NCBI GenBank assembly: GCA_963931925.1
Contig: OZ007570.1
Coordinates: 48,390,556-48,454,555, forward strand
Source of the DNA: Onchidella celtica
Taxonomy: Eukaryota > Mollusca > Gastropoda > Systellommatophora > Onchidiidae
Reading direction: 5' to 3'
DNA length: 64,000 bases
Of the stretch, positions 5,993-64,000 are shown piece by piece. Under the pieces are notes generated by a model. The model did no database searches, was not told the origin of the DNA, and worked only from the letters and a program-made list of their open reading frames with translations. Made by a program: the position numbers and the translations under genes. Each line of letters starts with the position of its first letter. Positions within the stretch are counted from its first letter, which is position 1.

Positions 5993-6187
5993 ATGGTCCA
6001 TCCTCTTTATAACTACTAACAGGTGGCGTGAACCGGCTAAGTTACTACTGGCATCCTGAAGATGTACACAACAGTCTCAGCTCTGGCTGTAGCAAGTTAC
6101 ATCATATGGACAAAACAACAGGTCCCAGACCTGCAACGGTGGTCCCAGACCACTATCAGGGTTAACGTAGGATCGAACAGTACAAAA
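5993..6187 (-). repeat. Inverted copy of the element's 3' internal end
   Basis: Reverse complement of 8853-9042, the stretch between pol and the 3' LTR. The inverted repeat therefore crosses the LTR boundary into internal sequence. The switch to unique pol sequence is at about 6188, after GAACAGTACAAAAAAA. Confidence 0.75.
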
Positions 6188-6188
6188 A

Positions 6189-8591
6189 AATACCATTGGC
6201 GTCAGGTTAAATCCCAACAAGTGCTCATTTGCCCGCTCTTCAGTACCCTTCCTAGGACACACTATCTCGAATGAGGGGATCTCTACTGATGAAGACAAGG
6301 TCCGCGCCATAACGGAATATCCTATGCCGAAGACCATGAGAGACCTAAGGACTTTTCTGGGGATGGTGGGCTATTACCGTCGTTTCATAAAGCATTTCGC
6401 CAGAATGGCCCGCCCCCTCCATGAAGTCATCAGCAAGGCAAACCAGCAGAACCAAGGCAGCTACAAGAAGCACCAAAAACTGGGTGAGCTATGGACGACT
6501 GAATGCCGACAAGCCTTCCTGGAACTGCGAGATGCCCTCTACAGCGACGCAGTAATGTTGGCCTACCCTGATTTCGACAAGCCTTTCGTCTTGGAAGTAG
6601 ATGCTAGCCATGAAGGTCTAGGTGCTGTCCTCAGCCAGGAGAAGGACGGACGACGACGTGTAATCTCTTACGCAAGCAGAGGATTGAGGCCCAACGAGAG
6701 GAAGATGCGTGGATACAGTTCATACAAGCTGGAACTACTAGCAATGAAGTGGGCCATAACCGAGAAATACCGGGGATATTTGATGGGCAACTGCTTCACC
6801 GTATACACCGATAACAACCCCCTAAGTCATATTCTGTCTTCCAAACGCAGTGCAGTGGAACAACGCTGGATAGCTGAACTCGCAATGTTCAACTTTGATA
6901 TCAAGTACCGCTCGGGGAAGGAAAATGCGAATGCTGATGCTCTGTCCCGACACCCCCTTCCGGCACCACCCGACGAGGACGCTGATGAATTGGTAACTAT
7001 TGCTTCCGCCGGCCTGCAGTCTACCACACACCTCCCATTGGAAGTTGCCACCACGGTTGGAGAGGAGGTGTTTGTGAACCATCTGCACTTGTCTCCTGCC
7101 AAAGCCCTTATTCCCTCCCTCAATAACGAAGACCTAGCAGCTGCCCAAGAAGATGATCCAGCCATCCAAGTTGTCTACCGAGCAGTAAGGGCGCAACAAA
7201 AACCCACAGCCATAGAGCGCAAAGACCTAACTAGTGACACCCTCGCCATACTGAAACAGTGGCACAAGCTTTCCATCCACGACAGCATACTAGTGCGGAA
7301 GATTCTCGACCCAGTCCACGGAGAAGTAAAACAGGTAGTTTTACCATCCAAATATCGTGAAACTGCTATTAGGTTTGCACACGACGGCACCGGACATCAA
7401 GGCCCCGAGCGAACACTCGCCCATATACGACAACGGACCTATTGGCCAGACCAAACCAGTATGGTTCAACAGTATTGCCAACAGTGCGAGCGGTGCCAGC
7501 GATCTAAGCATCCCCCTGTCCGTGTTGCCAAACCCACTGGTCATCTTGTGGCCACTCACCCCTTGCAAATTGTGGCCATGGACTTCGCAAAAATTGAGCC
7601 CACTACTGATGGCTACGAAAACATACTGGTCATGACAGATGTTTTCACCAAGTGGACAGTAGCAGTGCCAACCAAGGACCAGACAGCAGCGACAGTTGTT
7701 CGCCACCTCATTCACTCGTGGATTGTCCACTATGGGGTTCCAGAGAGGCTACATTCCGACCAGGGACGGCAGTTCGAGGCTGAAGTGGTACGCCAGCTCT
7801 GCAGCCACTATGGCATCACCAAGTCCCGCACCACCGCTTATCATCCACAGGGCAACGGCCAGTGCGAACGGTTCAACCGCACTATGTTCAGTCTGCTGAC
7901 CACCTTACTCCCAGAACAGAAGTTAAGATGGCGAGAATACCTGCCGGAATTAACTTTCTGTTACAATGCCACCCCCCATTCTTCCACTGGAGTGTCCCCT
8001 TACGAGCTCTTGTTTGGCAGGAAACCACGTCTGCCATTAGATGTCTATCTGGGCGACGAGACACCAGCCTCCACTTCGGTAGGCGACTACGTCCAGCGGC
8101 ATATACAACGGCTCAACGAACTGAGGGCGAAGGTAGCGAGGAAGGTGGAGTCCACGCACCTTCTGCAGGACGCACGAAGGACGACCCCCCACAACGCCGC
8201 CCATCTTCAGCCGGGCGACCATGTCCTTGTCAAGCACCACTATCCTGGTCGACACAAGATCCAGGACCCGTACCCCGGTCCTGTGCACACCGTCCTGTCT
8301 GTTCCCCCGCCTCATGGTGGTTACTTTACCATCAGAAACCCAGATGGAGATGCCTCTGCGGTCAACGGAGACCTCTTGCGGTTATTTCACCCCCCAGTGG
8401 TCAACACACATCCACAGCACCCGCCTCCACTGCCTGCGTCGACCGATGTCTGGTACTTCCCGGCTCACCACCCTTGCCAGCCACCTGCAGCCCGACCGGA
8501 CCGTCAACCTGGGATGACAACTTCCCAGCGCCTACCTCCTGTGCGACGGTCCAGCCGCCCACACAGACAACCCCAGAGATTGGACCTCTGA
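6189..8591 (+). pseudogene. pol: Gypsy-type pol, 5'-truncated (RT thumb, RNase H, integrase)
   Basis: The frame is open from about 6189, before the first ATG at 6324, and runs to a stop at 8591. The start is a breakpoint and not a real initiator: it enters the reverse transcriptase at the NPNKCSFAR...FLGH segment, so the fingers, palm and catalytic YxDD are gone. Numbering from the ATG, the RT thumb/connection (RTFLGMVGYYRRF) is at residues 8-20. RNase H follows with Asp 93 (VDAS), Glu near 137 (YKLELLAMKW) and Asp near 162 (YTDNNPL), ending at NADALSRHP. Integrase has an H2C2 zinc-binding region near residues 352-395 (CQQCERCQ) and DDE residues at about 419 (MDF), 478 (HSDQGRQF) and 514 (CERFN). 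The C-terminal tail is proline-rich. The RNase H-then-integrase order is standard for Gypsy. Integrase may still be intact, but with no gag, protease or RT palm the element cannot replicate alone. Confidence 0.8.
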
Positions 8592-11680: not shown

Positions 11681-14600
11681 TCACTTTAACTGACAGCTTC
11701 TCTCGTGGCTTATTCTACCAATGTTTGACCCGAGAGTGCGATGGCAGTGATTGCAGGTCAGTCTTTTGGGTTCACTTTGGCGAGTGTTTTCATTCCGCCT
11801 CTGTCGTTTTGTCAGGTATGTTTCTTTTGCCTTGAAGTCTATTGCGAGCGTGCCACTGCGCAATTTTTGTCTCCATCTGCTTCGATCATTTGCAAGGTTC
11901 TCCCATTCATTGGGGTCGATGTTGAATGCTTTCATCGTGACCTTGCAAGTGTCTTTGAATCGCAGATGTGGCCTACCTCTGGGTCGGTTGCCAGTAGCAA
12001 GTTCCCCGTAGAGAATTTGTCTGGGGATGCGATCATTTTCCATACGGTGGAGATGTCCAAGCCACCGCAGTCTTTTTTTGCCTAGGAGAGCCTGAGTTGA
12101 TGGAATGTTGGCTCGGCTCAGAACTTCGATATTTGAGATCCTGTCTTGCCACTTGATCTTGAGAATTTTGCGTAGGCAGCGCAGGTGGAAGGAGTTGAGG
12201 GATCTTTCATGTTTGGAGTAGGTGGTCCATGTCTCTGAGCCATACAGCAGGGTGCTTAGGACGCAAGTTTGGTACACGAGTACCTTTGTTTTGATGGTCA
12301 GCTTGCTATTGTTCCACACCCTTTTTGAGAGTTTGCCAAAAGCTGTGGCCGCCTTTCCTATTCTGGCATTTATTTCAGTTGTTATGTCTGTGCTACCACT
12401 GATGGTTGAGCCTAGGTAGCAGAATTTTCCCACTTGCTCCAGAGGAGAGCCATTCAGCATGATTGGGTTGGGGTTTCTCAAGCCTTGTGTCAAAACTACA
12501 GTTTTTGAGACACTGATCTTTAGCATGAATTTGTCACAGGCTTTGGCAAGGCTATTGATGAGAGCCTGGAGCGTGGTTTCATCGTGGGCCACGATTGCAG
12601 CATCATCTGCGAAGAGGAGCTCTTGTAACATAATATGCTCTGTACGAGATTTTGCTTTTAGTCTGGCAACATTAAAAATGGAGCCGTCCACTCTGGTGTT
12701 AATAAGTACTCCACCTGAACATTGACCAAAGGCATTCTTGAGTAGGGCTGCAAAATATATACCAAATAAGGTAGGAGCAAGAACACATCCCTGCTTCGCA
12801 CCGCTGTTTACAGCAAATGAATTGGATGTGCAGCCCTCAAAGTTGACACATGCCCTCATGTCAGTGTGGAAGGATGCAATAAGTTTTAGCAATGTTGGTG
12901 GACAGCCTATGGATTTAAGGACTGCATACAGGCCAGATCGGCTTACGGTGTCGAAAGCCTTTGTTAGGTCCACAAAGCATGTTATAAGCGGCCTGTTTTG
13001 TTCATTACATTTTTCTTGGATTTGCCGAAGTGCAAATATCATGCCAATAGTTGATCGTTTGCTTCGAAAGCCACATTGTGTTTCTGGTAAGACTTTTTCC
13101 GCCAGTTGTTGAAGGCGGCAGAGGATGACGCGAGCAAAAGCCTTTCCAGTAATGCTGAGGAGGGATATGCCTCGATAGTTGTTGCAGTCGCCTTTGTCTC
13201 CTTTGTTCTTGTAAAGTGTGACAATTTTGGCGTCTCTCATATCATGTGGTATCACGCCTTCTTTCCAACACTGCAGTAACAGATTATACAGGTGTGGTAA
13301 TAGTGGGCCTTTTAGGTCTTTTAATACCTCTGCAGGAATGTTGTCACTTCCTGTGGCTTTTCCAGCAGACAGGTGGTCGATTGCATTGGAAAGCTCGACT
13401 AAGGAAGGTTCAGCGTCAAGTTCGGCCATTATTGGCAGTTTTTGGAGGTGTTCCTCAAAATCTGGTGGAATATTTTTCTCAGTTGAATACAACAGAGAGT
13501 AATGCTCTACCCACCTATTCAGTTGTTCATTTTTATCTGTGATGGGTTCACCATTTACAGACTTAAGTGGGGCGCTCTTGGTGATGATTGGCCCAAGAGC
13601 TACTTTCATCTGACTAAAGGCGGTTTTCATATCTCCCTTTTCATTTGCCTCTTGTATGCTGTTACACAAGTCTGTCCAGTATTTGTTGGCGCAACGTCTT
13701 ACCTCCAGCTGAAGTTTAGCTTTTGCATTTTTCAAACAAGTTTTTGTACTCTGATTGCAATTTTTGTTATACTCATTGAAAGCAGATTTCTTTTGCTCAA
13801 TGAGAGGTAGGAGAATTTCGCTGTTCTGGGCTACCCAGTCGTTGTTTGAAACTTTATGCTGTCCAAAAGACTTGATGGCACAGTCATGAATTTTTGAACT
13901 GAGAGTGTTCCATGTTTCATCTACCGAGTCACATTGGGTGACATTATCCATGCTTTCAGCAAATAACTTTTCAAATGACTTTCTATTTGATTCATCTCTG
14001 ATTGCTGTTACATTGATCTTAGGGATTGAAGGGGCTTTTGATCTGTATATTTTCTTGGCCGAAATTTTGATTTTGCTGACTACCAGTGCATGGTCGGTGT
14101 CACAGTCAGCACTGTGGAGGGAACGAGTTATTTTTATACAGCCCAAACTCTTCCTCCTTGAGAGAATAAGATCTAATTGATGCCAATGGCCAGACCTGGG
14201 ATGGCGCCATGATGTTCTTTGGCATCTCTTAAGGTCAAAGTACGTGTTTGTAACACATAATGAGTTTACGGAGCATAGCTCCAGAAGGCGCTGCCCGTTT
14301 TCGTTGATGTTGCCAATGCCGAAGTGCCCAATGCACTTTGGCCATGCGGAGTGATCTGCTCCCACTCGAGCGTTAAAGTCACCCAGAATTAGCAGGCCTT
14401 CGGTGAGAGGGATGTTGTGGAGAGTCCTCTGCAATGCCTCGTAGAAAATGTCTTTGGTTTCGTCAGAGGAGGTAAGTGTTGGGGCATAGACACAGATAAT
14501 GTTGGTAAAACCAGACCGGGTGTTCAGTCTGAGTGTCATGATGCGTTCTGACACTCCAATTGGAGTTGCGATCGAATTGATAAGGGAGTTTTTTACGGCG

Positions 14601-14812
14601 AAGCCCACGCCGTGGATTCTCGGCTGTTCGCTGCTAAGGCCCTGCCAGAAGAAGGTGTAGTTTTCTTCTTTGACTGACCCGGAGTCGGGAAGTCGAGTTT
14701 CTTGAAGGGCAGCGATGTCGATGTTTAGTAGCTGAAGTTCTCGATCAATAATTTGGGATTTCCTGATGGAGTCAATATTAGTGAGATCTTGCTGTTGCAA
14801 GCCTGGGCGCAT
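11681..14812 (-). CDS. LINE ORF: AP endonuclease plus reverse transcriptase, intact
   Basis: A 1043-residue uninterrupted frame. It would nick target DNA and copy the element RNA at the nick (target-primed reverse transcription). The N-terminal quarter is an AP-type endonuclease: LQETRLPDSG, YAPT, GDFNARVG, the RTSWRHPRSG...QLDLIL block and CDTDHALV carry the expected acidic and His residues. The reverse transcriptase occupies the middle: NNYRGISLLSITGK, FVDLTKAFDT, SGAKQGCVLAPTLF and the catalytic LLFADDAA. The C-terminal part holds RWLGHLHRM and RPRGRPHLRFKD blocks and ends with a Cys/His finger (CNHCHRTLG...HERSC). Upstream of the ATG the frame stays open for about 30 codons and reads LKLGTWNVRT, the usual start of this endonuclease, so true translation probably begins upstream, perhaps at a non-ATG codon. 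No frameshift is seen, so this copy looks young. Confidence 0.85.
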   Translation of the reverse strand: MRPGLQQQDLTNIDSIRKSQIIDRELQLLNIDIAALQETRLPDSGSVKEENYTFFWQGLSSEQPRIHGVGFAVKNSLINSIATPIGVSERIMTLRLNTRSGFTNIICVYAPTLTSSDETKDIFYEALQRTLHNIPLTEGLLILGDFNARVGADHSAWPKCIGHFGIGNINENGQRLLELCSVNSLCVTNTYFDLKRCQRTSWRHPRSGHWHQLDLILSRRKSLGCIKITRSLHSADCDTDHALVVSKIKISAKKIYRSKAPSIPKINVTAIRDESNRKSFEKLFAESMDNVTQCDSVDETWNTLSSKIHDCAIKSFGQHKVSNNDWVAQNSEILLPLIEQKKSAFNEYNKNCNQSTKTCLKNAKAKLQLEVRRCANKYWTDLCNSIQEANEKGDMKTAFSQMKVALGPIITKSAPLKSVNGEPITDKNEQLNRWVEHYSLLYSTEKNIPPDFEEHLQKLPIMAELDAEPSLVELSNAIDHLSAGKATGSDNIPAEVLKDLKGPLLPHLYNLLLQCWKEGVIPHDMRDAKIVTLYKNKGDKGDCNNYRGISLLSITGKAFARVILCRLQQLAEKVLPETQCGFRSKRSTIGMIFALRQIQEKCNEQNRPLITCFVDLTKAFDTVSRSGLYAVLKSIGCPPTLLKLIASFHTDMRACVNFEGCTSNSFAVNSGAKQGCVLAPTLFGIYFAALLKNAFGQCSGGVLINTRVDGSIFNVARLKAKSRTEHIMLQELLFADDAAIVAHDETTLQALINSLAKACDKFMLKISVSKTVVLTQGLRNPNPIMLNGSPLEQVGKFCYLGSTISGSTDITTEINARIGKAATAFGKLSKRVWNNSKLTIKTKVLVYQTCVLSTLLYGSETWTTYSKHERSLNSFHLRCLRKILKIKWQDRISNIEVLSRANIPSTQALLGKKRLRWLGHLHRMENDRIPRQILYGELATGNRPRGRPHLRFKDTCKVTMKAFNIDPNEWENLANDRSRWRQKLRSGTLAIDFKAKETYLTKRQRRNENTRQSEPKRLTCNHCHRTLGSNIGRISHERSCQLK

Positions 14813-14905
14813 TGTTCTGACGTTCCAGGTACCAAGTTTTAGTATTTTTCTGTTTTTGCCAGGTGCACACTTTACGTCAGCTTTTTGACTTTTGGTCTAG
14901 CTCCA

Positions 14906-26012: not shown

Positions 26013-26333
26013 TGTTCTTTGCTATGTTGGGCTTAGTTGAAATGTATGTATGTTCGGGCAAGGGGAGTAGGGGTGTCCTTGTCAAAACCCCAGCTCAGCA
26101 GAAAGTAACACGGAAAATGCACCATGAAGTCTGTGAGAAATAATTTATATAGTCTAAAGGAAAATAGACATATTATGCTTTCGGTAATAAGGATATTTGT
26201 TAGGTTCAGACAGCCAGAAAACATGATACAAATTTGAAATTAACAAAATTATAGTTTGATACTACAAATGTTAGAAATATAATTCCCTTTAAACCGTTTC
26301 CTTGTTTTTCAAAGCTGCTAATAGTCTTGAACT

Positions 26334-28733
26334 TTATGCCTGAATGCACAGTCCTGTCGAAATAAACGTGAAGAAGTGTGTAGCCTAGTGGAAGATATGA
26401 ACATGGACATACTTTGTATAACTGAATCATGGTTGCAGGAGACAGGAGATGACCCTATACTTGTTGAACTGTCACCACCTGGTTTTACATGTAAATCATT
26501 CCCAAGAGAGGGTCGAAGGGGAGGAGGCATTGCTTTTATATATCGGCAAGACATCAAATCTGCAAATGCATTCAGGAATCTACCATCACTCGAAACAAAA
26601 TTTGAAAGTTTTGAGGCAGCTTTTCTTACGTTGTCACCAATGCAAAATGTACTGTTTTATGTTGTTTGCATTTACAGACCTCCGCCATCTAAGAAAAATA
26701 CATGTACCATCTCACAATTTCTGGCCGAGATGCAACAACTCCTATACCATCTTATATCGAAAACAAAAAAATTCATTATAACGGGAGATTTCAATTTACA
26801 TTTCGATTCAACTACATCTCTAGATGTTCTTCGTTTTAAAGAACTGTTAGAAGAGCATGATGTTATTCAACATGTTAATCAAGCTACACATAAATCCAAC
26901 CATATTTTGGACTATGTCATTGCACCATTATCAGAAATGAACATTTTAAGTGTCAACATTCTTGATAAAGCTATTTCAGATCATTTCTTGATAACTATTG
27001 ACACTAATTTTCCTAAACCTCTGACGATAAAGAAAACGTTTGAATCCAGGAACTTAAAGAACATCAACGAGAAGGATTTCAGACATGATCTAAAAAAAAA
27101 CTTGAATCAGGCAGCAAACAACATGACAATGGAAAACTTCAATGTTGCTCTAAAAACAACATTAGACCAACATGCTCCGGTAACACCAAGGACAGTATCA
27201 CATCGACCATGGTCACCATGGTTCGCCCTTGAAATTAAAGAATTAAAACGTAAAAGACGCCAAGATGAACGGCGATGGAGGAAATCGGAATTGCAAGTTC
27301 ACAGTGACATTTTCAAAGAAAGTAAAAACAATGTTGTAAAATTGATTCAGAAACTCAAACGGGGTTATTTTATCCAAAAATTTAGCAGTGTTAAAACATG
27401 TAGAGATCTTTTTCTGCTCTCTGACAAACTTTTGGGGAAAGAAACAAGTTCGGTTTTTCCACAGGGTGACCATAAAGACTTATGTGAAATGTTTTCATTG
27501 TATTTTTATGAAAAAATTGAACGTATCAGATCTAATTTTAACAATGTTGCCAATTTATTACCTGAACTATGTGTTTTTGAAGGCAGGAAATTGACTGATT
27601 TCCAGATGTTGGCTGAGACTGAGATTAAAGATCTTATCAAAAACTCACCATCCAAATCATGTGAATTAGACCCACTTCCGATGACATTTGTGAAATTGTA
27701 TCTTGATGAGTTATTGCCATCCATTACTCATGTAATCAATGTTTCTCTGAGAACTGGTGTTGTACCAGATTCTTTCAAACAGGCAATTGTAAAACCTTTG
27801 ACTAAAAAAGCTGGGCTCGACGTAAACAATGCGAAAAATTATAGGCCTGTGTCAAACTTACCAATTATGTCTAAGATCCTTGAAAAATCAGCGTTGAGGC
27901 AAATCATGGAGCACATTGAAATAAATAATTTGAATGAGATATTCCAGTCGGCATACAAAAAGGGCCACAGTACTGAGACTGCTATCCTCAGAGTAGTGAA
28001 TGATATTCTTCTAGAGCTCGATGACAAAAGAGTATGTATTCTTGTACTTCTGGACTTGTCTGCTGCCTTTGATACTTTAGATCATAACATTCTATTACAT
28101 CGTCTAGAAAAGACCTTTGGTATTGCAGGAAATGCACTGTCATGGTTTCAGTCCTATCTTTCAAATAGAAAACAATGTGTGAGAGTCAATGATAGTTGTT
28201 CTAATGTCCAAACACTCAATTTTGGGGTACCTCAAGGTTCTGTTTTGGGCCCAATTCTTTTCACATTATACACCCAACCTCTTGCTGATATTTTCAGAAA
28301 ATATGATCTTCAATACCACCAATACGCTGATGATAGCCAAATATATAAAGCATGTGATCTTGAAAACCTAGATGATACGATAAAAACAATGGAGCATTGC
28401 ATACAAGAAGTTAAGAAATGGATGGATGATAATAAGCTAAAACTAAATGATGAGAAAACAGAAGTTATGCTCATAACGAATCCAAAACAAAAAATCAATC
28501 CACCAGATCTCAATGTAAATGGCCATCTTATTAAAATGACAAGTAAAGTAAAAGATCTGGGCACAATCTTAGATGCAGAGATGTCAATGTCACCATTTAT
28601 TAGTCAGCTGTGTAAGAATCTTAATTTCCAGTTACGGAAAATCAGCAGTATACGGCACTGCCTAACTACTGAAGTAACAAAACAGCTTGTAACATCGCTG
28701 TTTCTCTCTAGGCTGGACTATTGTAACATACTG
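26334..28733 (+). mobile_element. L2/CR1-like LINE, 5' part (interrupted by a second LINE)
   Basis: The coding frame enters near LNAQSCRNKR, the usual start of the endonuclease, so the element is 5'-truncated or only its last ORF is present. The endonuclease shows ITESWL, VCIYRPPPSKK, ITGDFNLHF, NHILDYVI and SDHFLITI. The reverse transcriptase shows YRPVSNLPIMSKILEK, LLDLSAAFDTLDH, FGVPQGSVLGPILFTLY and YHQYADDSQIY (catalytic YADD). The frame is cut at SRLDYCNIL by an inserted LINE at 28734 and resumes at 31423. It lies in intron 1 of the minus-strand host gene, in antisense orientation. Apart from the insertion the frame is uninterrupted. Confidence 0.8.
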
Positions 28734-31417
28734 AGATTATGGAGCTATCATTAGATCTTGGCACCAAAGTCTTTCATTTGGTCTGCATTTATCGAGCGTC
28801 AGGCAGTAAAACCAATTTTCTGAGTGAACTTGAAGTTCTCCTACCACGCTTAACCTGCGAGAAAGGATACCCTGTTCTTTTGGGTGATCTTAATTTTCAT
28901 TTTGATTCTGAAACATCATCTGAAGTAAAACGACTTAAAGAACTTATCGACCAATCAACATGTCTCAGATAATCAAATGTCCAACTCATCGAGCTGGTCA
29001 CATCTTAGATTTAGTGATCATCAAACAAACCTTGAGCACCTTCACCAACACCGCCGTCCTAGAAAAACTCATTTCGGATCATAAAACCATCGTACTCGAT
29101 ATTGATTTCGCAAAGCCAAATATCATCAAAAAAGTTGTGTCGTCCAGAGACATAAAAGGTATCGACATCAATGCCTTCAAGACGGAAATGGCCAATGCTC
29201 TCGAGAACTTTGAAGGCGACATCACATCTTATAATAACATCCAGCAAGATCTACTACAGCGACATGCACCTATCAAGACCAGGTCCATCTCCAACAGACC
29301 GTTCGCTCCATGGTACACCCTAGATGTCAAAGCAGCCAAAGCAGAATGTCGCAAAGCAGAAAGGAAATGGTTAAAGACAGGTCTTACAGTCCACAAGGAC
29401 ATTTTCAAACACCAGAAGAACAAATGGAAATGTGTTATTAAACTGGCAAAAAAAGACTTCTATGTCACTAAACTTCAAAATTCTACATCTTGTAAGGAAC
29501 TTTTTAGTATTTGTGATGAACTCACAGGGAAAAGAAAGGAAACACCTCTACCCACAATTTACGAGAACAATTTGTTGCCCAATGTTTTTGCTGATTATTT
29601 TGGTAAAAAAGTTACAACTATCCGAGAAAATCTTGACAGTTTTGATGCCATTGATCATTTTGATGAGTTTCAGGGAAATCCTATAGACACTTTTGGTGTT
29701 GTGTCGAATGAATCTGTAAAATCTATCATCATGGCATCGCCATCAAAATGTTGTGACCTCGATCCTATTCCTACATTTTTTGTTAGATCTTGTATTGATG
29801 AACTGGTTCCAACTATTACAAAAATAATAAACAACTCTATTTTAAGTGGGTCTGTCCCTGATTATTTTAAAACAGCCTGGGTAACACCACTTTTGAAAAA
29901 AACGACTCTTGATCAAAACATGTTGAAAAATTATAGACCCGTCTCAAACCTTCCTTTTCTTTCAAAAATCCTTGAAAAGGTGATATTACAACAACTAATG
30001 TGTCATTTGAGAAATAATGACCTGTTGGAACCATTTCAATCTGCTTACAGAAGTAACCACAGTACTGAAACTGCACTATTAAGAATCATGAATGACATAT
30101 TAGTAAAGGCAGATTCTGGAAATATTACTCTGCTAAATTTGTTGGATCTATCAGCAGCGTTCGACACCATCGATCACGAAATCCTGCTCAGAAGGCTAGA
30201 AACATCGTTTGGAATCAGAGGGGTCGCCCTTAAATGGGTCGAATCTTACCTGTCAAATCGCCACCAATTTGTTGTAACCAACAAAATAAGATCTTTTTCT
30301 TATGCGCTTCAGTATGGCGTACCACAAGGCTCAGTGCTTGGTCCTATTTTGTTTACTATCTATACTATTCCACTTGTACATGAAATAAAGAAATTTAATT
30401 TACAATATCATTTCTATGCTGATGATACCCAGCTCTACAGTTCTGCCTTGCCATGCGATGTTGACAGCCTTCTGCAGCAGGCTGGAAACTGTATAACAGA
30501 AATTAAAAGCTGGATGAACCAAAACAAACTGGCACTAAATGAGGATAAAACTGAGGTTATTTTATTAGGCCGTGAGCGGGTTCTGCAAGAAGTGGACAGA
30601 ACTGAGATGATAATTGGCACTAATTCAATAGAAATTTCAAAAAAAGTAAAAAACCTAGGGGTTTACATTGATTCAAATCTTTCTATGTCATCTCAGGTTA
30701 GTCACCTCATTCGTATTCTATACATGGAAATCTGGAAAATTGGTAAAATCAGACATATTATTTCAACTGAAACTGCGGCTGTTTTAGTAAATTCTTTTGT
30801 ACTTTCAAAGCTTGACTATTGCAACTCCCTTTTGGCTGGAATTTCACAAAAAAATATTAGAAAACTCCAAATTGCTCAAAACAATGCAGCGAGACTTGTT
30901 TGGAAGAAAAAGAAAAGAGATTCAGCACTGCCACTTCTGCAGAGTTTGCACTGGCTGCCAGTCGAGAAAAGAATAATGTACAAATTGTCATCCATTTGTC
31001 ACAAATGTGTCAATAATACTGCTCCATCGTACCTAGTTGATTTAACTGATTACTATGTTCCATCTCGTCAACTAAGATCATCATCTGACACTACAAAATT
31101 GAAAGTACCTAAAATGAATCTGTCCACTGTAGGAGAAAAGTCCTTTTCATTTCTTGGCCCTACCATCTGGAACACTCTTCCAAAGACAACCAGGGAAATT
31201 AATGACATTGGTTCTTTCAAACGCCATCTGAAGACCCATTTCTTTCAGACAAACTAGGCTAGGTGTTTTTCGGCAGCAACAATAGTAAATATTTTTGAAT
31301 TTCTTTTGTGTATGCGTGTGTGTGTGTGTGTGTAAGAGTTTGTTAAAGCGCCCAGAGCTTGTCATCGACGGGGTTGGGCGCTATATAAATGCAATATATT
31401 ATTATTATTATTATTAT
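28734..31417 (+). mobile_element. Second L2/CR1-like LINE nested in the first
   Basis: 5'-truncated within the endonuclease (first residues ELSLDLGTKVFHLVCIYRA). The coding sequence is broken once by a frameshift near 28960: frame 28739-28972 gives LLGDLNFHFDSET, and frame 28960-31257 continues from IIKCPTHRAGHILDLVI. The rest is open for 765 codons with YRPVSNLPFLSKILEK, LLDLSAAFDTIDH, YGVPQGSVLGPILFTIY, YHFYADDTQLY and the C-terminal GPTIWNTLPKTTREI block. The 3' UTR carries a (TG)n tract, then AAAGCGCCCAGAGC...GGGCGCTATATAAATGC and an (ATT)n tail. The host LINE sequence TACTG (28729-28733) reappears at 31418-31422, a target duplication. Confidence 0.8.
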
Positions 31418-47706: not shown

Positions 47707-47912
47707 GCTGTTAGCACAGACCTACACGTTGGTGGCTGTGGGCTATGGTCGCTTCATCGTCGATTGAAGTGGAGGCGTGGGGAGGCAGCACCCACAGTAG
47801 CTGAGCAGCCTTATTTAAGGATAGCACTGCTCACCTCAACTGAGGAAGGGGCTAGAAAAGGTGCCCTAAAGAAAGCCCACTTCACATCACCCTGACTGGT
47901 ATACCGCGACCG

Positions 47913-49100
47913 GTGGGGATCCCTTTTTGCGGTCGAAACAAAAAGAAATTCAGCTTACTCAGGCTAGGAGCCTGGAATATACGCACACTACAGGACAACT
48001 CAAACAACCCGGAAAGACGCACTGCACTTATTGCCATTGAGCTCAGCAGGTACAACCTGGACATAGTGGCACTCAGTGAGACCAGACTCCCTGATAGTGG
48101 CCAACTCAAAGAGCTCAGTGGTGGATACACCTACTTCTGGAAAGGCAAGGGTGCAGTCGAACCGAGACAGCATGGTGTTGGGTTTGCAATTAAAAATGAC
48201 CTTGTCAGAAACTTGCAGTCCATGCCAACTGAAATAAATGACAGGCTAATGACACTCAGGATCCCAGTTGGGAAAAGCCAGTCAGCCACCCTCATTAGCG
48301 CATATGCGCCCACCATGACAAACCCAGATGAAGCCAAAGACAAGTTCTATTCTGATCTAGAATCTGTCATATGCTCTGTCCCGGCAGCTGATAAGCTGAT
48401 TCTCTTGGGGGACTTCAATGCTAGGGTTGGCTCAGAAATCTCAGCGTGGCCAAATGTTTTGGGCCCTCGTGGAGTTGGTTCATGCAATAACAATGGGTTG
48501 CGCTTACTTACTTTGTGCGCTGAATTTGGCCTGTTCATTACCAACACAAATTTTAGTCTCCCCGTGAGAAACAGAACGTCATGGATGCATCCCCGCTCAA
48601 AGCATTGGCATCTCATAGACTATGTCATTGTGAGGAAGACTGACAGAAAGGATGTCCTTGTAACAAAGGCGATGTGTGGTGCCGAGTGTGGAACTGACCA
48701 CAGACTCATTGTTTGCAAGCTCAGACTAACATTGAGACGCAATAGACGCCCTCAAGGGAAAGCGCCACCTAAACGCCTAAATGTTTCAAAACTCTGCTCA
48801 GCTGAGAAACAGAGCGAGCTCTCCTCAGAACTCTCCTCAAAATTGGATTGCGTGACTTTTGACCCTGAGAACATTGAACAGAGCTGGACTGACCTAAATA
48901 CGACTGTACACTCTTGCGCCAGCAGTACAGTTGGTTTTCCTGTCCGCAAGCACCAGGACTGGTTCAATGATAATGATAATGAAATCAAAGTGCTCATCAA
49001 AGAAAAAAATAGTCTCATCCAAGCTCACTGCAGTGACCCCTCTTCACAGCAAAAGCTGATGCACTGGGTGCATGTAAGGGTGTACTCCAGAAGAAGCTGA
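47913..49100 (+). pseudogene. LINE coding frame 1: AP endonuclease
   Basis: Starts MGIPFCGRNKKKFSLLRLGA, then WNIRTLQDN. Endonuclease motifs: LSETRLPDSGQ, SAYAPTMTNPDEAK, LLGDFNARVGS, RTSWMHPRSKHW, IDYVIVR and CGTDHRLIV. It leaves frame at about 49050 (SSQQK), where one base is missing or extra relative to the family, and the protein continues in another frame at QKKLRKMKNDW. It is a homologue of the intact LINE ORF at 11.7-14.8 kb. Confidence 0.8.
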
Positions 49101-49105
49101 GGAAA

Positions 49106-50908
49106 ATGAAAAATGACTGGCTAGAAGATCGAGTAAGAGAAACTCAGAAATATGCTGACACAAACAACACTAGAAAGTTCTTTGAGAGCCTCCGAGCTGT
49201 GTTTGGACCATCCCGCTCTGGCACTACGCCACTTCTTGCGTCAGATGGTTCAACACGCATTGTAGAATTGAATGCCATAATTCAGCGCTGGGCAGAACAT
49301 TTCGGAGGTGTGCTAAATCGGCCATCAAATATAAATACTGAGTCCATTGACCGCCTCCCTCAGACTCCTATTAATGCAGCTCTTGCCAAGCCATTCACAG
49401 CAAATGAGACCCGGACTGCCACAAATCAGATGTCCTTTAACAAATCACCAGGCGTGGATTCAATTCCTGCTGAGGTGTATGCCTTCGGTGGAGAAAAGCT
49501 TATTGAAAGGTTGACCGAATTGTTCAATCATATGTTGAAAGCAGGGAAGCTGCCACAGGACTTCAAAGATGCTTCAATCATCCATCTGTACAAAAACAAA
49601 GGGGACAGCCAAGTCTGTGACAACCATCGGGGAATCTCTCTACTTTCAATTGCTGGCAAAATATTGGCAAGAATGCTTCTGAATCGCCTTCTTGATCACC
49701 TCTCGTCAAATGACTTGCTTCCCGAGAGCCAATGTGGCTTTCGTAAAGAGAGGGGAACGGCGGACATGATCTTTGCTGCCAGACAGATTCAGGAAAAATG
49801 CATGGAACAAAATAAAGCGCTGTACATCACATTTGTTGACCTCACAAAAGCATTTGATACAGTGTGTCGTGAAGGCCTCTGGAAAATCTTGGCGAAGTTT
49901 GGGTGTCCACCCGAATTCATCACAATAGTGCGCCAGTTTCATGATGGCATGCAAGCTGCAGTCAAAAGTAACGGCAGTGTTTCAGAGCCCTTTGCGGTCA
50001 CAAATGGGGTAAAACAGGGTTGTGTCTTAGCCCAAACTCTGTTCAGCATCATGTTCTCTGCAATGCTACAAGAAGCCTTTAGCTCTCCTCCTCAAGGGGT
50101 AAGCATCAAGTACCGAACTGATGGCAGTCTATTCAACCTCAGGAGACTTCAGGCAAAAACCAAAACCAAAAGTACTCAAGTCTGTGACCTACTATTTGCT
50201 GATGATTGTGCACTTCTGGCACACGATGAGGATAGCATGCAAAACTGTGTTGATAAGTTCTCTAGTGCCTGTGACAACTTTGGCCTCACAATAAGCACAA
50301 AGAAGACGGAAGTGCTCCATCAGCCTACTCCAGACGACAAGTATCCTGTGACCCCAAATATCAAAGTCCATGACAGTCTTCTGAAGGTGTCGGAGAACTT
50401 CACCTATCTTGGCAGTACACTGTCTTCCACGGCTCGTGTTGATACTGAAATTCCCTCAAGAATCAGCAAAGCCAGCTCTGCATTTGGCAGGCTTCGAAAG
50501 AGAGTATGGGATGTTGCCGGCATTCGCACAGACACTAAGCTGAAAGTGTACAATGCTGTGGTCCTTCCCACCCTACTCTATGGGGCTGAAACCTGGACAG
50601 TGTACCAATCGCATGCCAGAAAACTAAATCACTTTCATCTGGCCTGCCTTAGAAAGATCCTAAGGATCAAATGGCTGGATAAAATTCCAGACACTGAGGT
50701 CCTCAATCGTGCCAAGGAATTGAGCATCTTCTGTCACCTGAAAAAAATTCAGCTAAGTTGGGCAGGACATGTTGTCAGAATGCCCGACTCCAGACTCCCT
50801 AAGCAAATCTTCTTCTCTGAGCTCTCCAATGGAACGAGGAATGTTGGGGCCCCAAAAGAGACGTTACAAAGACACTCTCAAGCAATCACTGAAGGCCTTT
50901 GCCATTGA
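49106..50908 (+). pseudogene. LINE coding frame 2: reverse transcriptase
   Basis: Contains the RT blocks SPGVDSIPAEVY, NHRGISLLSIAGK, FVDLTKAFDTVCREG, GVKQGCVLAQTLFS and the catalytic DLLFADDCAL. C-terminal LYGAETWTVY and SWAGHVVRMPDSRLPKQIF follow. It leaves frame near 50850 (NVGAPKE), where a second single-base shift moves the protein into frame 3. The first ATG is not a true start: the frame is open upstream. Confidence 0.8.
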
Positions 50909-55985: not shown

Positions 55986-57515
55986 CCTTAAACACGATAT
56001 ACAACTACAGACTCTGATAGGACCCCGCCCCCCCTCGCCCTTAAACACGATATACAACTACAGACTCTGATAGGACCCCGCCCCCCCCTCGCCCTTAAAC
56101 ACGATATACAACTACAGACTCTGATAGAACTACGCCCCCCCTCGCCCTTAAACACGATATACAACTACAGACTCTGATAGAACTACGCCCCCCCTCGCCC
56201 TTAAACGCGATATACAACTACAGACTCTGATAGAACTACGCCCCCCCCTCGCCCTTAAACACGATATACAACTACAGACTCTGATAGAACTACGCCCCCC
56301 CTCGCCCTTAAAAACGATATACAACTACAGACTCTGATAGAACTACGCCCCCCCTCGCCCTTAAACACGATATACAACTACAGACTCTGATAGAACTACG
56401 CCCCCCCTCGCCCTTAAACACGATATACAACTACAGACTCTGATAGAACTACGCCCCCCCTCGCCCTTAAACACGATATACAACTACAGACTCTGATAGA
56501 ACTACGCCCCCCCTCGCCCTTAAACACGATATACAACTACAGACTCTGATAGAACTACGCCCCCCCTCGCCCTTAAACACGATATACAACTACAGACTCT
56601 GATAGAACTACGCCCCTTCCTCGCCCTTAAACACGATATACAACTACAGACTCTGATAGAACTACGCCCCCCCTCGCCCTTAAACACGATATACAACTAC
56701 AGACTCTGATAGAACTACGCCCCCCCTCGCCCTTAAACACGATATACAACTACAGACTCTGATAGAACTACGCCCCCCCCTCGCCCTTAAACACGATATA
56801 CAACTACAGACTCTGATAGAACTACGCCCCCCCTCGCCCTTAAACACGATATACAACTACAGACTCTGATAGAACTACGCCCCCCCCCTCGCCCTTAAAC
56901 ACGATATACAACTACAGACTCTGATAGAACTACGCCCCCCCTCGCCCTTAAACACGATATACAACTACAGACTCTGATAGAACTACGCCCCCCCTCGCCC
57001 TTAAACACGATATACAACTACAGACTCTGATAGAACTACGCCCCCCCTCGCCCTTAAACACGATATACAACTACAGACTCTGATAGAACTACGCCCCCCC
57101 TCGCCCTTAAACACGATATACAACTACAGACTCTGATAGAACTACGCCCCCCCTCGCCCTTAAACACGATATACAACTACAGACTCTGATAGAACTACGC
57201 CCCCCCTCGCCCTTAAACACGATATACAACTACAGACTCTGATAGAACTACGCCCCCCCTCGCCCTTAAACACGATATACAACTACAGACTCTGATAGGA
57301 CCCCGCCCCCCCCTCGCCCTTAAACACGATATACAACTACAGACTCTGATAGGACCCCGCCCCCCCCCCTCGCCCTTAAACACGATATACAACTACAGAC
57401 TCTGATAGGACCCCGCCCCCCCCTCGCCCTTAAACACGATATACAACTACAGACTCTGATAGGACCCCGCCCCCCCCTCGCCCTTAAACACGATATACAA
57501 CTACAGACTCTGATA
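55968..57515. repeat. C-rich satellite array, 52-54 bp unit, about 29 copies
   Basis: Each unit is C6-8, then TCGCCCTTAAACACGATATA, then CAACTACAGACTCTGATAG, then a 7- to 8-base variable link. Two link types exist: GACCCCG in the first three and last four units, and AACTACG in the interior. Length differences come from the C run. The array is very homogeneous, so it is recent or maintained by gene conversion. No ORF of note. Confidence 0.95.
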
Positions 57516-57789
57516 GAACTATGTCCTTCCCTTCAACTGTATGAGTACTATCTAAACAAAATCAATATTACGTAGTTATAATTTCTGTGCCCATTTTCGT
57601 ACGCTAAGTCGGAAGTCCGAAGATTTTAACAAACTTCAAGCCCAATTGTTGATCATTAAATGTTGCATATTGGCGTCATATTGATAACTGAAAACGGCGC
57701 GACCAGAGTGGGAAAATTTCCAAATTTAGACAAATAACGAAGAAATACGCCATGCGAGTGGACCTGACGAAATCGGGTTTAAAGTAAAT
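57516..57789. other. Non-coding interval
   Basis: Nothing recognised. Confidence 0.4.
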
Positions 57790-59659: not shown

Positions 59660-59830
59660 CGTGACTAGTCCTAGCAGGGTCGTCTTAACATCGATAATTT
59701 ATAAGCCCCTGAGCATATTCTTTTGTAATACGGGGGATTTTCTTCCCCGTTTCAAAAAACCAATGTAAATTTGCAGGCATGGGACCCCTAAACCCTTGGG
59801 AGTCCATGAGCAACTGCCCAGTGTGCCTGT
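59660..59830 (-). repeat. Dispersed repeat D, copy 1
   Basis: Read on the minus strand: GGCACACTGGGCAGT, CATGCCTGCAAATTTACATT, GGTTTTTTGAAACGGGG and GATGTTAAGACGACCCTG. The same order of motifs is found on the plus strand at 34930-35065, inside MITE A copy 3. Non-coding. Confidence 0.5.
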
Positions 59831-60418
59831 GATGTTTCCACTTTCTCTCACTAACTTTCTTCTGACACCAGCCGTGATGGGCACGGCACAAACACACTAA
59901 ATAATCGACTATCTCTCTTCTATAAGTTATAACAAACGATATCTGTATTGCTTACATATATACAATAATTATTAATTCATTCAATAATAATAGGAACATA
60001 GGTCATACAATTTCATGTGAATTTCGATGGAATGAAGTTGATGCAAATCAGTACATGCTAATTAAATGGCTTCGTAATATTCAATCTCTAGCACATTTTA
60101 TAAAACACATGGGAACATTCAGCATAAGGAAACCTCTCCTTTAGGGGTGTATGGCGCTATCTGGGCACTGGTTCTTCCTCTCTACCCTGGCTTGACTGCG
60201 CAGTTAGATCAACAGGTATCGGCAGGTACCAATAGGTCGGGAAGCCAAGAAGCCACGATGTCGTTAATCAAAGTACAAGAAGTTGAGAAGCCAAGAAGGT
60301 GTTGTTCTTCCTCCTCTGTAGAAAAACAATCGCAAAGTCCTAATCTACTGCTGGAAGGCATGACTTCCATACTTACTCCATGACGGATATTCATCATTAA
60401 CACTTTTAACCGCTGACA
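59831..60418. other. Non-coding interval
   Basis: Left flank of, or possibly part of, the LTR element to the right. No gene recognised. Confidence 0.35.
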
Positions 60419-61209
60419 CTGTTATAAGTCAGGCTGCAGCTCCCATACTCCATAGGCTCCCATATAGGCAATAGAATAAACGATCAATACAGTTTTAATG
60501 ATATTTACACGTTCCCCACGAAGAATAACGCTCTCTCTAACGGACCCCATCCTATAAGGTTTCGTAACATATATATAACGGCGTTTCCGTGACTCTCTCA
60601 GAGGCAGTAGTTATACCAAAGTAAACCCACTAGATTTAGGTTCTACAATCATGAACATTAAGTAAAATACACATACATCGTACAATTAACTTACCACTCA
60701 GCAACAGCCCAAATGCCGACAAGATACCAAAGATACCACGCTCTGACAAAGGATGTTTGCGGGTTCCCTGACCTTCCCCACTCACAAGACTAGTACAAAG
60801 TTACAGTTGCAGTTGTGGTCTCCTCTTCGGCACGAAGCTGGTGAGTGCTCTCAGCGGTCTGAAGTTGGAAGGAGCGTTCGGGGATTTATACCCAGTCAGG
60901 TAGCGTCCCAAGACGCCCACCGAGTGTGCATTAGTTATCCTAATAGCCACCCCCGTCGGCTCCACGTCAAATACTGTTGAAACAGCTCTACCCCCCAAGC
61001 AATTCCCAGGTGATCTGATCGACAAGTACGGCGGTCAAGTAAACACTACCCTTTTCGGGTGTCAAAGCGCTTCAGTTGCATCCCATACTTTCCCCCTCTG
61101 GCCTACAATGACTCTGTCTCCCCGCCGTTAACTATCTTCCCACGCTAGTTATAGGCACAATATTATTATAACTACTAGTTATACCTTGCCAAACTATCAC
61201 CCTGTTACA
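60419..61209 (-). repeat. 3' LTR of the Gmr1-like element (left limit uncertain)
   Basis: On the minus strand it starts TGTAACAGGG at 61209, right after a polypurine tract, and I place its end at ...CTTATAACA near 60419, giving TG...CA ends and about 790 bp. The TATAAA at 60890-60885 (minus) is a candidate promoter. The second LTR lies outside the window, so the left limit and target duplication cannot be checked. Confidence 0.5.
60885..60890 (-). promoter_or_regulatory. Candidate TATA box of the LTR
   Basis: TATAAA on the minus strand inside the LTR, about 320 bp from its start, followed by GC-richer sequence. Inferred from position only. Confidence 0.35.
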
Positions 61210-61211
61210 AT

Positions 61212-61223
61212 CGCCCCCACTTA
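61212..61223 (-). other. Polypurine tract
   Basis: AAGTGGGGGCGA on the minus strand, two bases before the LTR start TGTAACAGGG. It fits the plus-strand primer of an LTR retrotransposon and fixes the orientation and the LTR edge. Confidence 0.7.
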
Positions 61224-61260: not shown

Positions 61261-64000
61261 TTAATCTACTGGTAATCTAGATAGAGTGTCGGCCCATAGA
61301 GCGTCTCGCCCCCTGATGTTGCTGACTCGAAAGTTATATGGTTGCAGCGCCAGGTTCCATCTAGTTACCCTCGCGTTCTTCTGGTCTTTAGTTCGCATCC
61401 AAGTTAGAGGTCGGTGGTCCGTCTCTAACACGAAGTTTCTCCCATACAGATACGCCTGCAACTTACTAACGGCGAAAACTATGGCCAGGCATTCCTTTTC
61501 AATTGTTGAGTAGTTCTTCTCCGCGGGTTTCAACTTTCTGCTAACATATACAACTGGATACTTCGTACCCTCGTCTTCTTGAAGTAGGCAGCCACTCACT
61601 CCAAGGTTAGATGCGTCTGTCTGGAGAATCAGTTCCTTGTTCCAGTCTGGCATCCGTAGTATCGGCTCGGAACTCAAACAAATTTTTAGGGCATTGAACG
61701 CGTTCTCCTGCGCGTGTCCCCACGCGAACTTTGTGCCCTGGGACTTCTTTGTGAGGTCTGACAACGGCGCCGAGATTGCACTGTAATTTGGTACAAACTT
61801 CCGATAGTACCCCGTTAGCCCCAGGAAACTCCTCACTTGTGTCTTGGTCGTCGGTCGGTCACAGTCGACAATGGCTCGCACCTTACTCTCCTGCGGTCTT
61901 ACAGTCCCCTGTCCCAGCTTATGGCCTAAGTACTCGACTTCTGTCATCCCTATTAGCGTCTTGGTAGGTCTAGCTTTTAAATTTGCCCGTCTCAGTCGCT
62001 CGAAGACATTCCGACAACGTTCCAAGTGGTCAGGCCAATTTGCACTGTGTATAAGACAGTCGTCTACAAATGCATCTACCCCTTCGCCAGCATCTTTTAA
62101 TACTTTCCTCATGAGCCTGTTAAATGTGGCGGGGGATCCCTTCAACCCGAACGGCATGACCCTGTACTGGTATAGCCCAAACGGTGTGGCGAACGCCGTC
62201 AGGTGTTTATCTTCCTCGGCCATCGGAACTTGATAAAAGCCCTTTGTCAAGTCCAGCTTGGTGAAATATTTTGCCTCCGCTAGATTGGAAATAATGGCTT
62301 CTACCTCAGGCATCGGTTCGGCGTCATCGGCAGTCACAACATTTAGCCGCCTGTAGTCGTTGCAGAAACGATGTTGACCATCGGGCTTCTTAACTAATAC
62401 AATTGGACTATTGTACGGGGACTCGGACGGTTCGATGATTCTGGCCGCAAGCATCTTGCCTACCTCAGCCTTGACAGCTTCTCTAGTTGAGTACGGTAGT
62501 TGGTAGGGTCTTACCTTCACAGGTTTTTGATCTAGCAATGGGATTTTGTGCTTGATCAGGTCAGTGAGCCCCGGTACATCGGTAAATATATCTTTGTATT
62601 CTTCCATGAGCTCTTGCATCTGTTCTCTCTGATCCTGATCTAGCGTGTCCCCTAACTGTACATCCCTGTAGGTTTCGGTCTGTTCTAGCCTAGGCATGAC
62701 TGTCTCCAGAGGCATCGAAGTCGCTTCCTCTCCTCCATCGGTCTCGTCAATTATAGCTGCAGCTATTGCCTCTGTGTTTTCCTGTTCGTCTTCCCTCTCA
62801 ATATACTTCTTCAGCATATTCGCGTGATACAATCGTCTCTTCCCCTTGACGTTCACCATGTAGTTCACTGACCCTCTCTGCTCTTCTACTTTGTAAGGCC
62901 CTTTCCAAGTCATCTGTAGTTTCGATCCGTCACTTGGGAGAAGTATGAGGACGGAATCGCCCACTTGGAATTTCCTCTGTTTGGCCCCCCTATCGTAGTA
63001 TTCCTTCTGCCTGTGTTTTTCGACGCTGCTGTTCTCGGCTACGACTTTCATGGCATCCTCCAATCGTTCCCTCATATCTACCACGTATTCGTACGATGAC
63101 CTCGTTTCTGACTCCGCTTCCCCAGTCCACAGATTCTTCAGTATTGCAAGTGGTCCTCTCACAGGGTGACCGAACACTAGTTCAAACGGCGAAAAACCTG
63201 TACTGGCCTGTGGGGTTTCGCGATACGCGAACAGCAGTGGACCCAACATTCTGTCCCAGTCCTTGGGTCTGTCATGAGCTACTCGGCGAAGCATATTCTT
63301 CAGCACTCCGTTAAATCTTTCACACAGACCATTGGCCATCGCGTGGTAGGGCGAGCAGAATATCTGTTTCGTTTTGAGAAGTGCACTGACCTCTCTCATC
63401 AGCTCACCGGTAAACTGTGATCCCCTATCTGAAACTATTTCCTTTGGTATGCCTAACCGAGAAAATATTTCCATTAACGCTTCACTGACCTGCTCAGCTG
63501 ATATCCCCCTTAAGGCTACGGCATCCGGGAAACGCGTGGCATAATCTACTAGCGTCAAAATATAACGCGATCTCCCATGTTCCGTACGCGGAAGTGGACC
63601 AACCAAATCTATGGCGACGCGCGAAAAGGGCGTGTCGATCAGGGGTGTCGGCACTAGGGGTACCTTTGTCACCCTACCTTTGTTGGATGTCCTTTGACAC
63701 GCGTCACACGATCGACAGAAACGACCTACGTCCGCACCTATCCCAGGCCAAAAGAACGACTGCATTATTCTGTCCTGTGTGCGCGAAATTCCTAAGTGTC
63801 CCCCGAACACTCCTTCGTGAGCTATCTTCATCAGCTCACTTCGGTACTGCTTAGGTACCAACAACTGCTCCACATCAGCGCGTCCAGCCCCGGCCTTCTT
63901 TACCCGATAGTAAATTCCCTTACTCTCCTTTATGTGAGTACCTACCTCAGCCGATTGCTCCAACGTGGCTCTCTCCCTTAAAACTCTCAAAGTTTCGTCC
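61261..64000 (-). CDS. pol: Gypsy-type pol, partial, order integrase-RT-RNase H
   Basis: An open frame of at least 909 codons running off the right edge, with its stop at 61261. Domains in order, numbered from the first complete codons in the window: integrase zinc-binding region (HEGVFGGHLG...CRSCDACQ, about 58-98); integrase core with DDE at AIDLVGPL (about 130), VSDRGSQF (about 187) and CERFN (about 223); a GPY-like module (WKGPYKVEEQRG...YHANMLKKY, about 360-395). Then a complete reverse transcriptase (RPYQLPYSTRE, VLVKKPDGQHRFCNDYRRLN, LDLTKGFYQVPM, AFATPFGLYQYRVMPFGLKG) with the catalytic FVDD in place of the common YVDD, thumb RSFLGLTGYYRKF, and RNase H (QTDASNLGVSG, STIEKECLAI, ETDHRPLTW, ADTLSRLP). 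The stop is followed within 50 bp by the polypurine tract and LTR. Integrase before RT is the Copia-like order, seen in Gypsy relatives called Gmr1-like. Gag and protease would lie to the right. No frameshift is seen. Confidence 0.9.
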   Translation of the reverse strand, partial: DETLRVLRERATLEQSAEVGTHIKESKGIYYRVKKAGAGRADVEQLLVPKQYRSELMKIAHEGVFGGHLGISRTQDRIMQSFFWPGIGADVGRFCRSCDACQRTSNKGRVTKVPLVPTPLIDTPFSRVAIDLVGPLPRTEHGRSRYILTLVDYATRFPDAVALRGISAEQVSEALMEIFSRLGIPKEIVSDRGSQFTGELMREVSALLKTKQIFCSPYHAMANGLCERFNGVLKNMLRRVAHDRPKDWDRMLGPLLFAYRETPQASTGFSPFELVFGHPVRGPLAILKNLWTGEAESETRSSYEYVVDMRERLEDAMKVVAENSSVEKHRQKEYYDRGAKQRKFQVGDSVLILLPSDGSKLQMTWKGPYKVEEQRGSVNYMVNVKGKRRLYHANMLKKYIEREDEQENTEAIAAAIIDETDGGEEATSMPLETVMPRLEQTETYRDVQLGDTLDQDQREQMQELMEEYKDIFTDVPGLTDLIKHKIPLLDQKPVKVRPYQLPYSTREAVKAEVGKMLAARIIEPSESPYNSPIVLVKKPDGQHRFCNDYRRLNVVTADDAEPMPEVEAIISNLAEAKYFTKLDLTKGFYQVPMAEEDKHLTAFATPFGLYQYRVMPFGLKGSPATFNRLMRKVLKDAGEGVDAFVDDCLIHSANWPDHLERCRNVFERLRRANLKARPTKTLIGMTEVEYLGHKLGQGTVRPQESKVRAIVDCDRPTTKTQVRSFLGLTGYYRKFVPNYSAISAPLSDLTKKSQGTKFAWGHAQENAFNALKICLSSEPILRMPDWNKELILQTDASNLGVSGCLLQEDEGTKYPVVYVSRKLKPAEKNYSTIEKECLAIVFAVSKLQAYLYGRNFVLETDHRPLTWMRTKDQKNARVTRWNLALQPYNFRVSNIRGRDALWADTLSRLPVD

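What the first reader, a model, noticed from the sequence alone, without database searches (positions are those of the whole stretch)
61261..64000. Gypsy-family pol with integrase upstream of reverse transcriptase (Gmr1-like order)
Seen directly: one open frame holds a Gypsy-type integrase with a GPY-like module, then a complete Gypsy-type RT, then RNase H. The stop is followed by a polypurine tract and LTR within 50 bp. Known: almost all Gypsy elements have RT-RNase H-integrase. The reversed order was described for Gmr1 of cod and relatives in deuterostomes. If this genome is a protostome (mollusc), the lineage is wider than its first description. Active-site FVDD is also unusual.
Basis: partly seen in the sequence, partly recalled or inferred. 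Interest (0 to 1): 0.7.

Follow-up and report, generated by a model that had tools for sequence, protein, structure and literature searches.

The report
Young integrase-first Gypsy retrotransposon in mollusc
This is a recently jumping, complete LTR retrotransposon of a mollusc whose enzymes are encoded in an unusual order (integrase before reverse transcriptase), a known but uncommon type called Gmr1-like that had been reported in vertebrates, crustaceans and an annelid.

Summary
One open frame on the minus strand encodes a Gypsy-type integrase, then RT, then RNase H. The host genome is held, and the DNA to the right completes the element: gag, protease and integrase follow one another with no RT between. 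The two 1382-bp LTRs are identical, with a 5-bp target duplication, primer site and polypurine tract. So it is neither a chimera nor a nested pair. The host is a mollusc by its haemocyanin domains. The family has at least 93 near-identical copies. Ten other copies all show 5-bp duplications, and 7 of 10 have identical LTR pairs, so it moved very recently. Two more families in the genome have the same order, and Gags of all three match the SCAN domain, which vertebrates took from Gmr1-like Gag. I found no mollusc report in the library held; a 2018 mollusc survey did not recover Gmr1. Verdict: a new member of a known kind.

The parts
59828..61209 (-). 3' LTR, 1382 bp, TGTAAC...ATCACA; identical to the 5' LTR, which lies outside the window (L011 2263-3644 = window-equivalent 65963-67344)
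   Evidence: exact match over 1382 bp, diverging on both sides
59823..59827 (.). 3' copy of the 5-bp target-site duplication (GGCAC in element sense)
   Evidence: same five bases precede the 5' LTR
61210..61222 (-). polypurine tract next to the 3' LTR
   Evidence: same tract in 10 of 10 other copies
61261..63999 (-). pol part of a single gag-pol frame; the frame runs on to L011 position 2114 (window-equivalent 65814)
63682..63858 (-). integrase zinc-binding domain (Integrase_H2C2)
   Evidence: 1.6e-19
63343..63630 (-). integrase catalytic core (rve), DD35E spacing
62803..62931 (-). integrase C-terminal, GPY/SH3-like part
   Evidence: below Pfam cut-off; Ty3 integrase aligned to residue 413
61915..62394 (-). 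reverse transcriptase (RVT_1), active site FVDD at 62059-62070
61336..61647 (-). RNase H (RT_RNaseH)
   Evidence: 2.3e-37

Best explanation
[quoted passage not shown] Likely cycle: the 5' LTR drives an RNA. One polyprotein is made and cut by the protease (DTG type). Gag, with a SCAN-type capsid C-terminal domain and CCHC knuckles, packages the RNA. RT starts from a tRNA at the primer site and second-strand synthesis starts at the purine tract. Integrase inserts the copy with 5-bp duplications. Because the enzymes are released by cleavage, integrase can sit before RT, as it does in Ty1/copia. Shown: anatomy, order, identical LTR pairs, duplications, many near-identical copies. Inferred: expression, cleavage and each step of the cycle.
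For: Order and intact ends. Domain identity. Gag SCAN 2e-11 and zinc knuckle. Two further integrase-first families whose Gags also match SCAN over cut-off, against no SCAN match in one canonical control Gag. Integrase before RT in 20 of 20 fetched places, the window copy being one. 93 of 93 scored places (window copy included; capped list) at 100% (rounded) identity over 452 aa, 88 of them with frames of 1489 aa or more. 11 of 11 copies, window copy included, with perfect 5-bp duplications; 8 of 11 LTR pairs identical. RT tree separates integrase-first from canonical elements at 100/99.
Against: No Gmr1 reference sequence could be placed in the trees. The integrase tree is only 84/87 and not decisive. 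In the third family's Gag piece, Retrotrans_gag scores above SCAN (35.2 against 30.7 bits), so SCAN is not its best match, and only one canonical Gag served as control. The protease pieces matched no Pfam or PDB entry and are named from the LRDTGC motif and position. No expression data.
Confidence: 0.87

Rival explanations
1. An independent reversal of pol order in lophotrochozoan Gypsy elements that only resembles Gmr1.
For: Direct kinship with Gmr1 could not be tested. The mollusc survey (PMC6238403) names 16 mollusc Gypsy clades, most of them not grouping with known clades, and did not recover Gmr1.
Against: SCAN-matching Gag in three integrase-first families; SCAN is reported to come from Gmr1-like Gag. 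Two traits shared by chance are less likely than one origin.
Confidence: 0.1
2. A chimera or nesting of two ordinary Gypsy elements, giving an apparent reversed order.
For: The window alone ends inside the integrase, so it could not exclude this. The integrase tree is weaker than the RT tree.
Against: gag, protease and integrase run on in one frame with no RT between; one LTR pair, one 5-bp duplication; 19 other fetched places alike; two other families alike.
Confidence: 0.02
3. A Gmr1-like family that entered this mollusc by horizontal transfer recently, explaining the near-identical copies.
For: Very low divergence among copies; patchy reports across protostomes.
Against: Two other deep integrase-first families, and relatives in which no RT was found (L055, L062), live in the same genome, pointing to long residence of the lineage. 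This does not exclude transfer of this one family.
Confidence: 0.1

Closest known systems
Gmr1 and Gmr1-like Ty3/Gypsy elements (Goodwin and Poulter 2002; cod, tunicate; known here only through citing papers)
   Same: Gypsy-type RT and integrase with integrase upstream of RT; SCAN-related Gag
   Different: Host is a mollusc; kinship by tree not tested; at least three deep families in one genome
Crustacean Gmr1-like elements (GyRex4, Gychoro2, GyMaja1, GyLiva4; PMC3587641, passages)
   Same: Protostome Gmr1-like elements, described there in 2013 as the first in protostomes
   Different: GyRex4 and GyRex5 are non-overlapping partial sequences; the mollusc element is complete with both LTRs
Annelid LGF3 family, Lamellibrachia (PMC8220671, passages)
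   Same: Lophotrochozoan, placed in Gmr1 by RNase H, RT and integrase trees (bootstrap 95, 99, 100)
   Different: Annelid host; no sequence to compare here
Ty1/copia elements
   Same: pol domain order protease-integrase-RT-RNase H
   Different: RT and integrase here are of Gypsy type (RVT_1, RT_RNaseH, Ty3 best)

Membership tests
Gmr1-like Ty3/Gypsy | integrase upstream of RT in pol | tested here: met
Gmr1-like Ty3/Gypsy | Ty3/Gypsy-type RT, RNase H and integrase | tested here: met
   Ty3 polyprotein 7q5b is the best solved relative of the integrase half and second-best of the RT half, after 4ol8 (recalled as Ty3 RT)
Gmr1-like Ty3/Gypsy | Gag related to the SCAN domain | tested here: met
   SCAN 43.9 bits against cut-off 27, its best match; a SCAN structure (PEG3, 4bhx) only at E 0.0074; sister families 32.0, 32.9 and 30.7 bits (in the last, Retrotrans_gag scores higher, 35.2); one canonical control Gag has no SCAN match
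Gmr1-like Ty3/Gypsy | RT and integrase cluster with Gmr1 reference elements | not testable with these tools
   no reference sequence held; scans of viral and genome contigs found no relative
Gmr1-like Ty3/Gypsy | RT and integrase each separate from canonical Gypsy elements | tested here: inconclusive
   RT split 100/99; integrase split 84/87, 82% of 200 bootstrap trees. Earlier trees with fewer canonical rows: RT 99/98, integrase 93/96
LTR retrotransposon | paired LTRs, target duplication, primer site, purine tract | tested here: met
   which tRNA primes was not tested
Ty1/copia | copia-type RT (Pfam RVT_2; name recalled) | tested here: not met
   RVT_1 and RT_RNaseH, no RVT_2
canonical Ty3/Gypsy | RT-RNase H upstream of integrase | tested here: not met
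   canonical elements in the same genome for contrast at window 6171-8591, L070, L072, L073

The most novel reading that the evidence does not exclude
The package of SCAN-type Gag with integrase-first pol arose once, before protostomes and deuterostomes split, and has persisted with bursts into the present. Molluscs would then hold a diverse, living part of the lineage that gave vertebrates their SCAN transcription factors, missed by surveys that classed elements by RT/RNase H without scoring domain order.
Probability: 0.5. Interest if true: 0.5.

Novelty: new member of a known kind. Interest (0 to 1): 0.4.

Why it matters
It gives a complete, young, multi-copy Gmr1-like element in Mollusca, with a SCAN-type Gag. 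In the papers seen here the type is reported from fish, tunicate, frogs, crustaceans and one annelid. It shows that integrase-first order is compatible with recent, repeated transposition, and it offers material for asking how old the SCAN-Gag/integrase-first package is.

Tried and rejected
Chimera or nested insertion: rejected as a local accident. Copia membership: rejected on RT type. FVDD as a special feature: sister families have YVDD and YFDD (in one of nine loci, L059, the script found no such motif). External relatives: IMG/VR with RT and integrase singly and with an integrase alignment and GTDB contigs with the integrase alignment gave none. The RT alignment was never built (one search failed on coordinates and was not repeated), and the second GTDB scan that was allowed was not used. 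NCBIfam gave bacterial transposases and a group II RT, all below cut-off.

Random survey of Gypsy order in the genome: only 8 regions of 10 kb could be had. They held one element with both domains, in canonical order (L070), so no proportion of integrase-first elements can be given, and the sample speaks neither for nor against their being common. The H2C2 list is picked by best score (150 scored of 12,725 candidates) and is no census. Genome-wide searches for SCAN domains, for the integrase piece and for the IN-RT junction did not complete. Paper search used 'mollus' as a whole word and so says nothing on molluscs.

Rows dropped before the trees: near-copies of family 3 (L054, L056-L061; L060 was in the earlier tree), L063 (frame broken), L062 (near-copy of L055), L001-L010 (partial, same families). 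The window's canonical RT row is partial (254 aa).

Full report
What was checked. The frame at 61261-63999 (minus) is open for 912 aa. Searched in two pieces, the upstream half is a Gypsy integrase (Integrase_H2C2 1.6e-19, rve 1.2e-12; Ty3 integrase aligned over residues 44-413) and the downstream half is RT plus RNase H (RVT_1 3.4e-32, RT_RNaseH 2.3e-37; best solved relatives 4ol8, recalled as Ty3 RT, 4.6e-81, and the Ty3 polyprotein 7q5b, 1.4e-80). The integrase C-terminal models of Pfam match below their cut-offs, so the GPY-like module rests on the Ty3 alignment. The acid residues have DD35E spacing (positions).

The part outside the window. The host assembly is held: 1.14 Gb in 43 contigs, window at C4:48390556-48454555. 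L011 overlaps the last 300 bases of the window and covers the next 8.4 kb to the right. The same frame continues up to L011 position 2114 (window-equivalent 65814) and holds Gag with two CCHC-like knuckles, then LRDTGC (protease-like), then the start of integrase. A search of L011 with the RT-RNase H piece gave no hit.

Ends. The 3' LTR (59828-61209) and the 5' LTR (L011 2263-3644) are identical over 1382 bp. Both begin TGTAAC and end ATCACA, and are flanked by the 5-bp duplication GGCAC. One base (A) after the 5' LTR comes TGGTGTCAGAAGTGGGATCC, the likely primer site (I recall it as complementary to tRNA-Leu; not tested; the first 19 of these bases were seen unchanged in 9 of 10 other copies and with one difference in the tenth). 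The 3' LTR is preceded by AAGTGGGGGCGAT. From LTR end to LTR end the element spans 7517 bp.

Copies. With the RT-RNase H piece, the genome search scored 93 places (of 14,990 first-look candidates, so a lower bound; the window copy is one of them). All 93 match at 100% (rounded) over 452 aa with no internal stop, and 88 of 93 have frames of 1489 aa or more. In the 20 fetched places (19 besides the window copy), integrase lies upstream of RT in 20 of 20, and the RT-RNase H DNA differs by 0 to 7 of 1356 bases from the window copy. For 10 copies other than the window's, picked by me from the list, I fetched the LTR regions only, as separate pieces. Over the LTR stretches aligned (1313-1474 bp), 7 of 10 pairs differ by nothing, one by 1, one by 2, and one by 8 mismatches with 2 gap columns. 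All 10 have a perfect 5-bp duplication: five read (GTGAC, GGCGT, CCCTG, CCGAG, CTACG) and five (GGGGG, ATCCT, ATGGG, ATTAC, GCAAT; in the second and fifth, one and two bases before TGTAAC that the two LTR sides share by chance were counted as flank). LTR lengths vary between copies (1339-1474 bp), yet the two LTRs of a copy agree, as expected if each copy was made by a recent reverse transcription. I give no age, because no mutation rate for the host is to hand. For scale, the largest LTRharvest family in the nine-genome mollusc survey had 23 sequences (PMC6238403).

Other families with the same order. Of the places in the best-scoring H2C2 list, 19 distinct ones were examined (L001-L010; L055-L063; L052-L054 are wider cuts of three of the first ten). 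In 17 of 19, RT follows integrase. In the other two (L055, L062), a protease-like stretch, seen by eye and not by the search, runs up to integrase, and no RT was found in the 2.4 kb after it; these look like elements that lost RT. None of the 19 had an RT match before integrase in the DNA fetched. They fall into at least two families besides the window's; between the three families RT is 43-47% and integrase 47-53% identical. The list is ranked by score and is not a census.

One lineage or a patchwork? With one row per family, the three integrase-first RTs are 43-47% identical to each other and 32-39% to canonical ones. The RT tree separates them from five canonical rows (four from this genome, plus Ty3) with support 100/99. 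For integrase, the four integrase-first rows (L055 included) are 40-53% identical to each other and 24-34% to canonical ones. The tree again separates them, but support is 84/87 (82% of 200 bootstrap trees), and L070 and Ty3 are long branches (with fewer canonical rows it was 93/96). So there is no sign that RT and integrase come from unrelated elements, and the RT result is firm; the integrase result is suggestive. The sample is small, and no Gmr1 reference could be added.

Gag. The window family's Gag matches Pfam SCAN at 2e-11 (43.9 bits, cut-off 27) and zinc knuckle; against solved structures it finds a SCAN domain (PEG3) only weakly, E 0.0074. Gags of the second family (32.0 and 32.9 bits) and third family (30.7 bits) also pass the SCAN cut-off, though in the third Retrotrans_gag scores higher (35.2 bits). 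The Gag of canonical element L070 matches DUF7041 and not SCAN. Only one canonical control Gag was in hand. Passages in three papers state that the vertebrate SCAN domain derives from, or is homologous to, the Gag of Gmr1-like elements (PMC3424704, PMC7231272, PMC4592553); the primary paper they cite is not held. SCAN in Gag is thus a second mark of Gmr1-like identity besides pol order.

Host. Search for the haemocyanin beta-sandwich domain found 33 matches in three clusters on contig C7, and in none of 14 control genomes, which the answer does not name. That this domain marks mollusc-type haemocyanin is recalled. The species was not identified.

Literature (passages seen, not whole papers, unless said). 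[quoted passage not shown] PMC8220671 (2021) places annelid family LGF3 in Gmr1 with strong support in all three domain trees. PMC8556966 (2021), 26 annelid species, says of that Gmr1 clade that it was not found in its own analysis. PMC6238403 (2018), section 6 read in full and passages elsewhere, put 989 mollusc Gypsy sequences in an RT/RNase H tree. It recovered six known clades, Gmr1 not among them, and 16 new MolGy clades; Gmr1 is mentioned once, in the background. Of 33 papers that hold both 'gmr1' and 'gypsy', five also hold 'mollus' and 'ltr'; in the passages of these five that I was shown no mollusc Gmr1-like element is reported. This speaks only for the library searched, and a MolGy clade may contain this lineage unrecognised.

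Verdict. Observation right; family call well supported by order and Gag but not proven by a reference tree; the protostome novelty claim is overtaken; mollusc host, completeness, recent burst and SCAN-type Gag are the additions.

Noticed in passing
G000:C6:10234474 and 10240610 (minus); C5:22871540 and 22877687 (minus): Two same-strand pairs of the window family spaced 6136 and 6147 bp, close to the length of an element minus one LTR (6135), as if neighbouring copies share an LTR. LTR-LTR recombination is the likely cause.
   Followed up: no
G000:C13:23550441-23599265 and C1:118319426-118343233 and C7:59369283-59393129: Longer arrays of integrase-bearing elements at regular spacing (7 at 8108 bp; 4 at 7877 bp; 4 at 7890 bp) in the H2C2 list, suggesting tandem LTR-sharing arrays or other tandem repeats.
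   Followed up: no
L001 and L006, sense position 892: In family 3 an in-frame TGA lies between the Gag and protease matches at the same place in two loci, while L003 lacks it there; gag and pol may be separated by a stop in some members, unlike the single frame of the window family.
   Followed up: partly
L055 and L062: Protease-integrase elements with no RT found downstream; by eye both frames diverge after a shared LS-SEI stretch, consistent with loss of RT-RNase H in a common ancestor copy.
   Followed up: partly
window 6171-8591: A canonical-order Gypsy element (RT-RNase H-integrase), a member of another large young family with over 100 full-length matches at 98% or more (capped list, window copy included).
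   Followed up: partly
window 11681-14896, 26331-31257, 47856-50908: Long frames with LINE-type endonuclease and RT look (by eye); not analysed.
   Followed up: no
window 57000-57580: Tandem array with a unit of about 53-54 bp close to the element (the search began at 57000, so the left end is not known).
   Followed up: no
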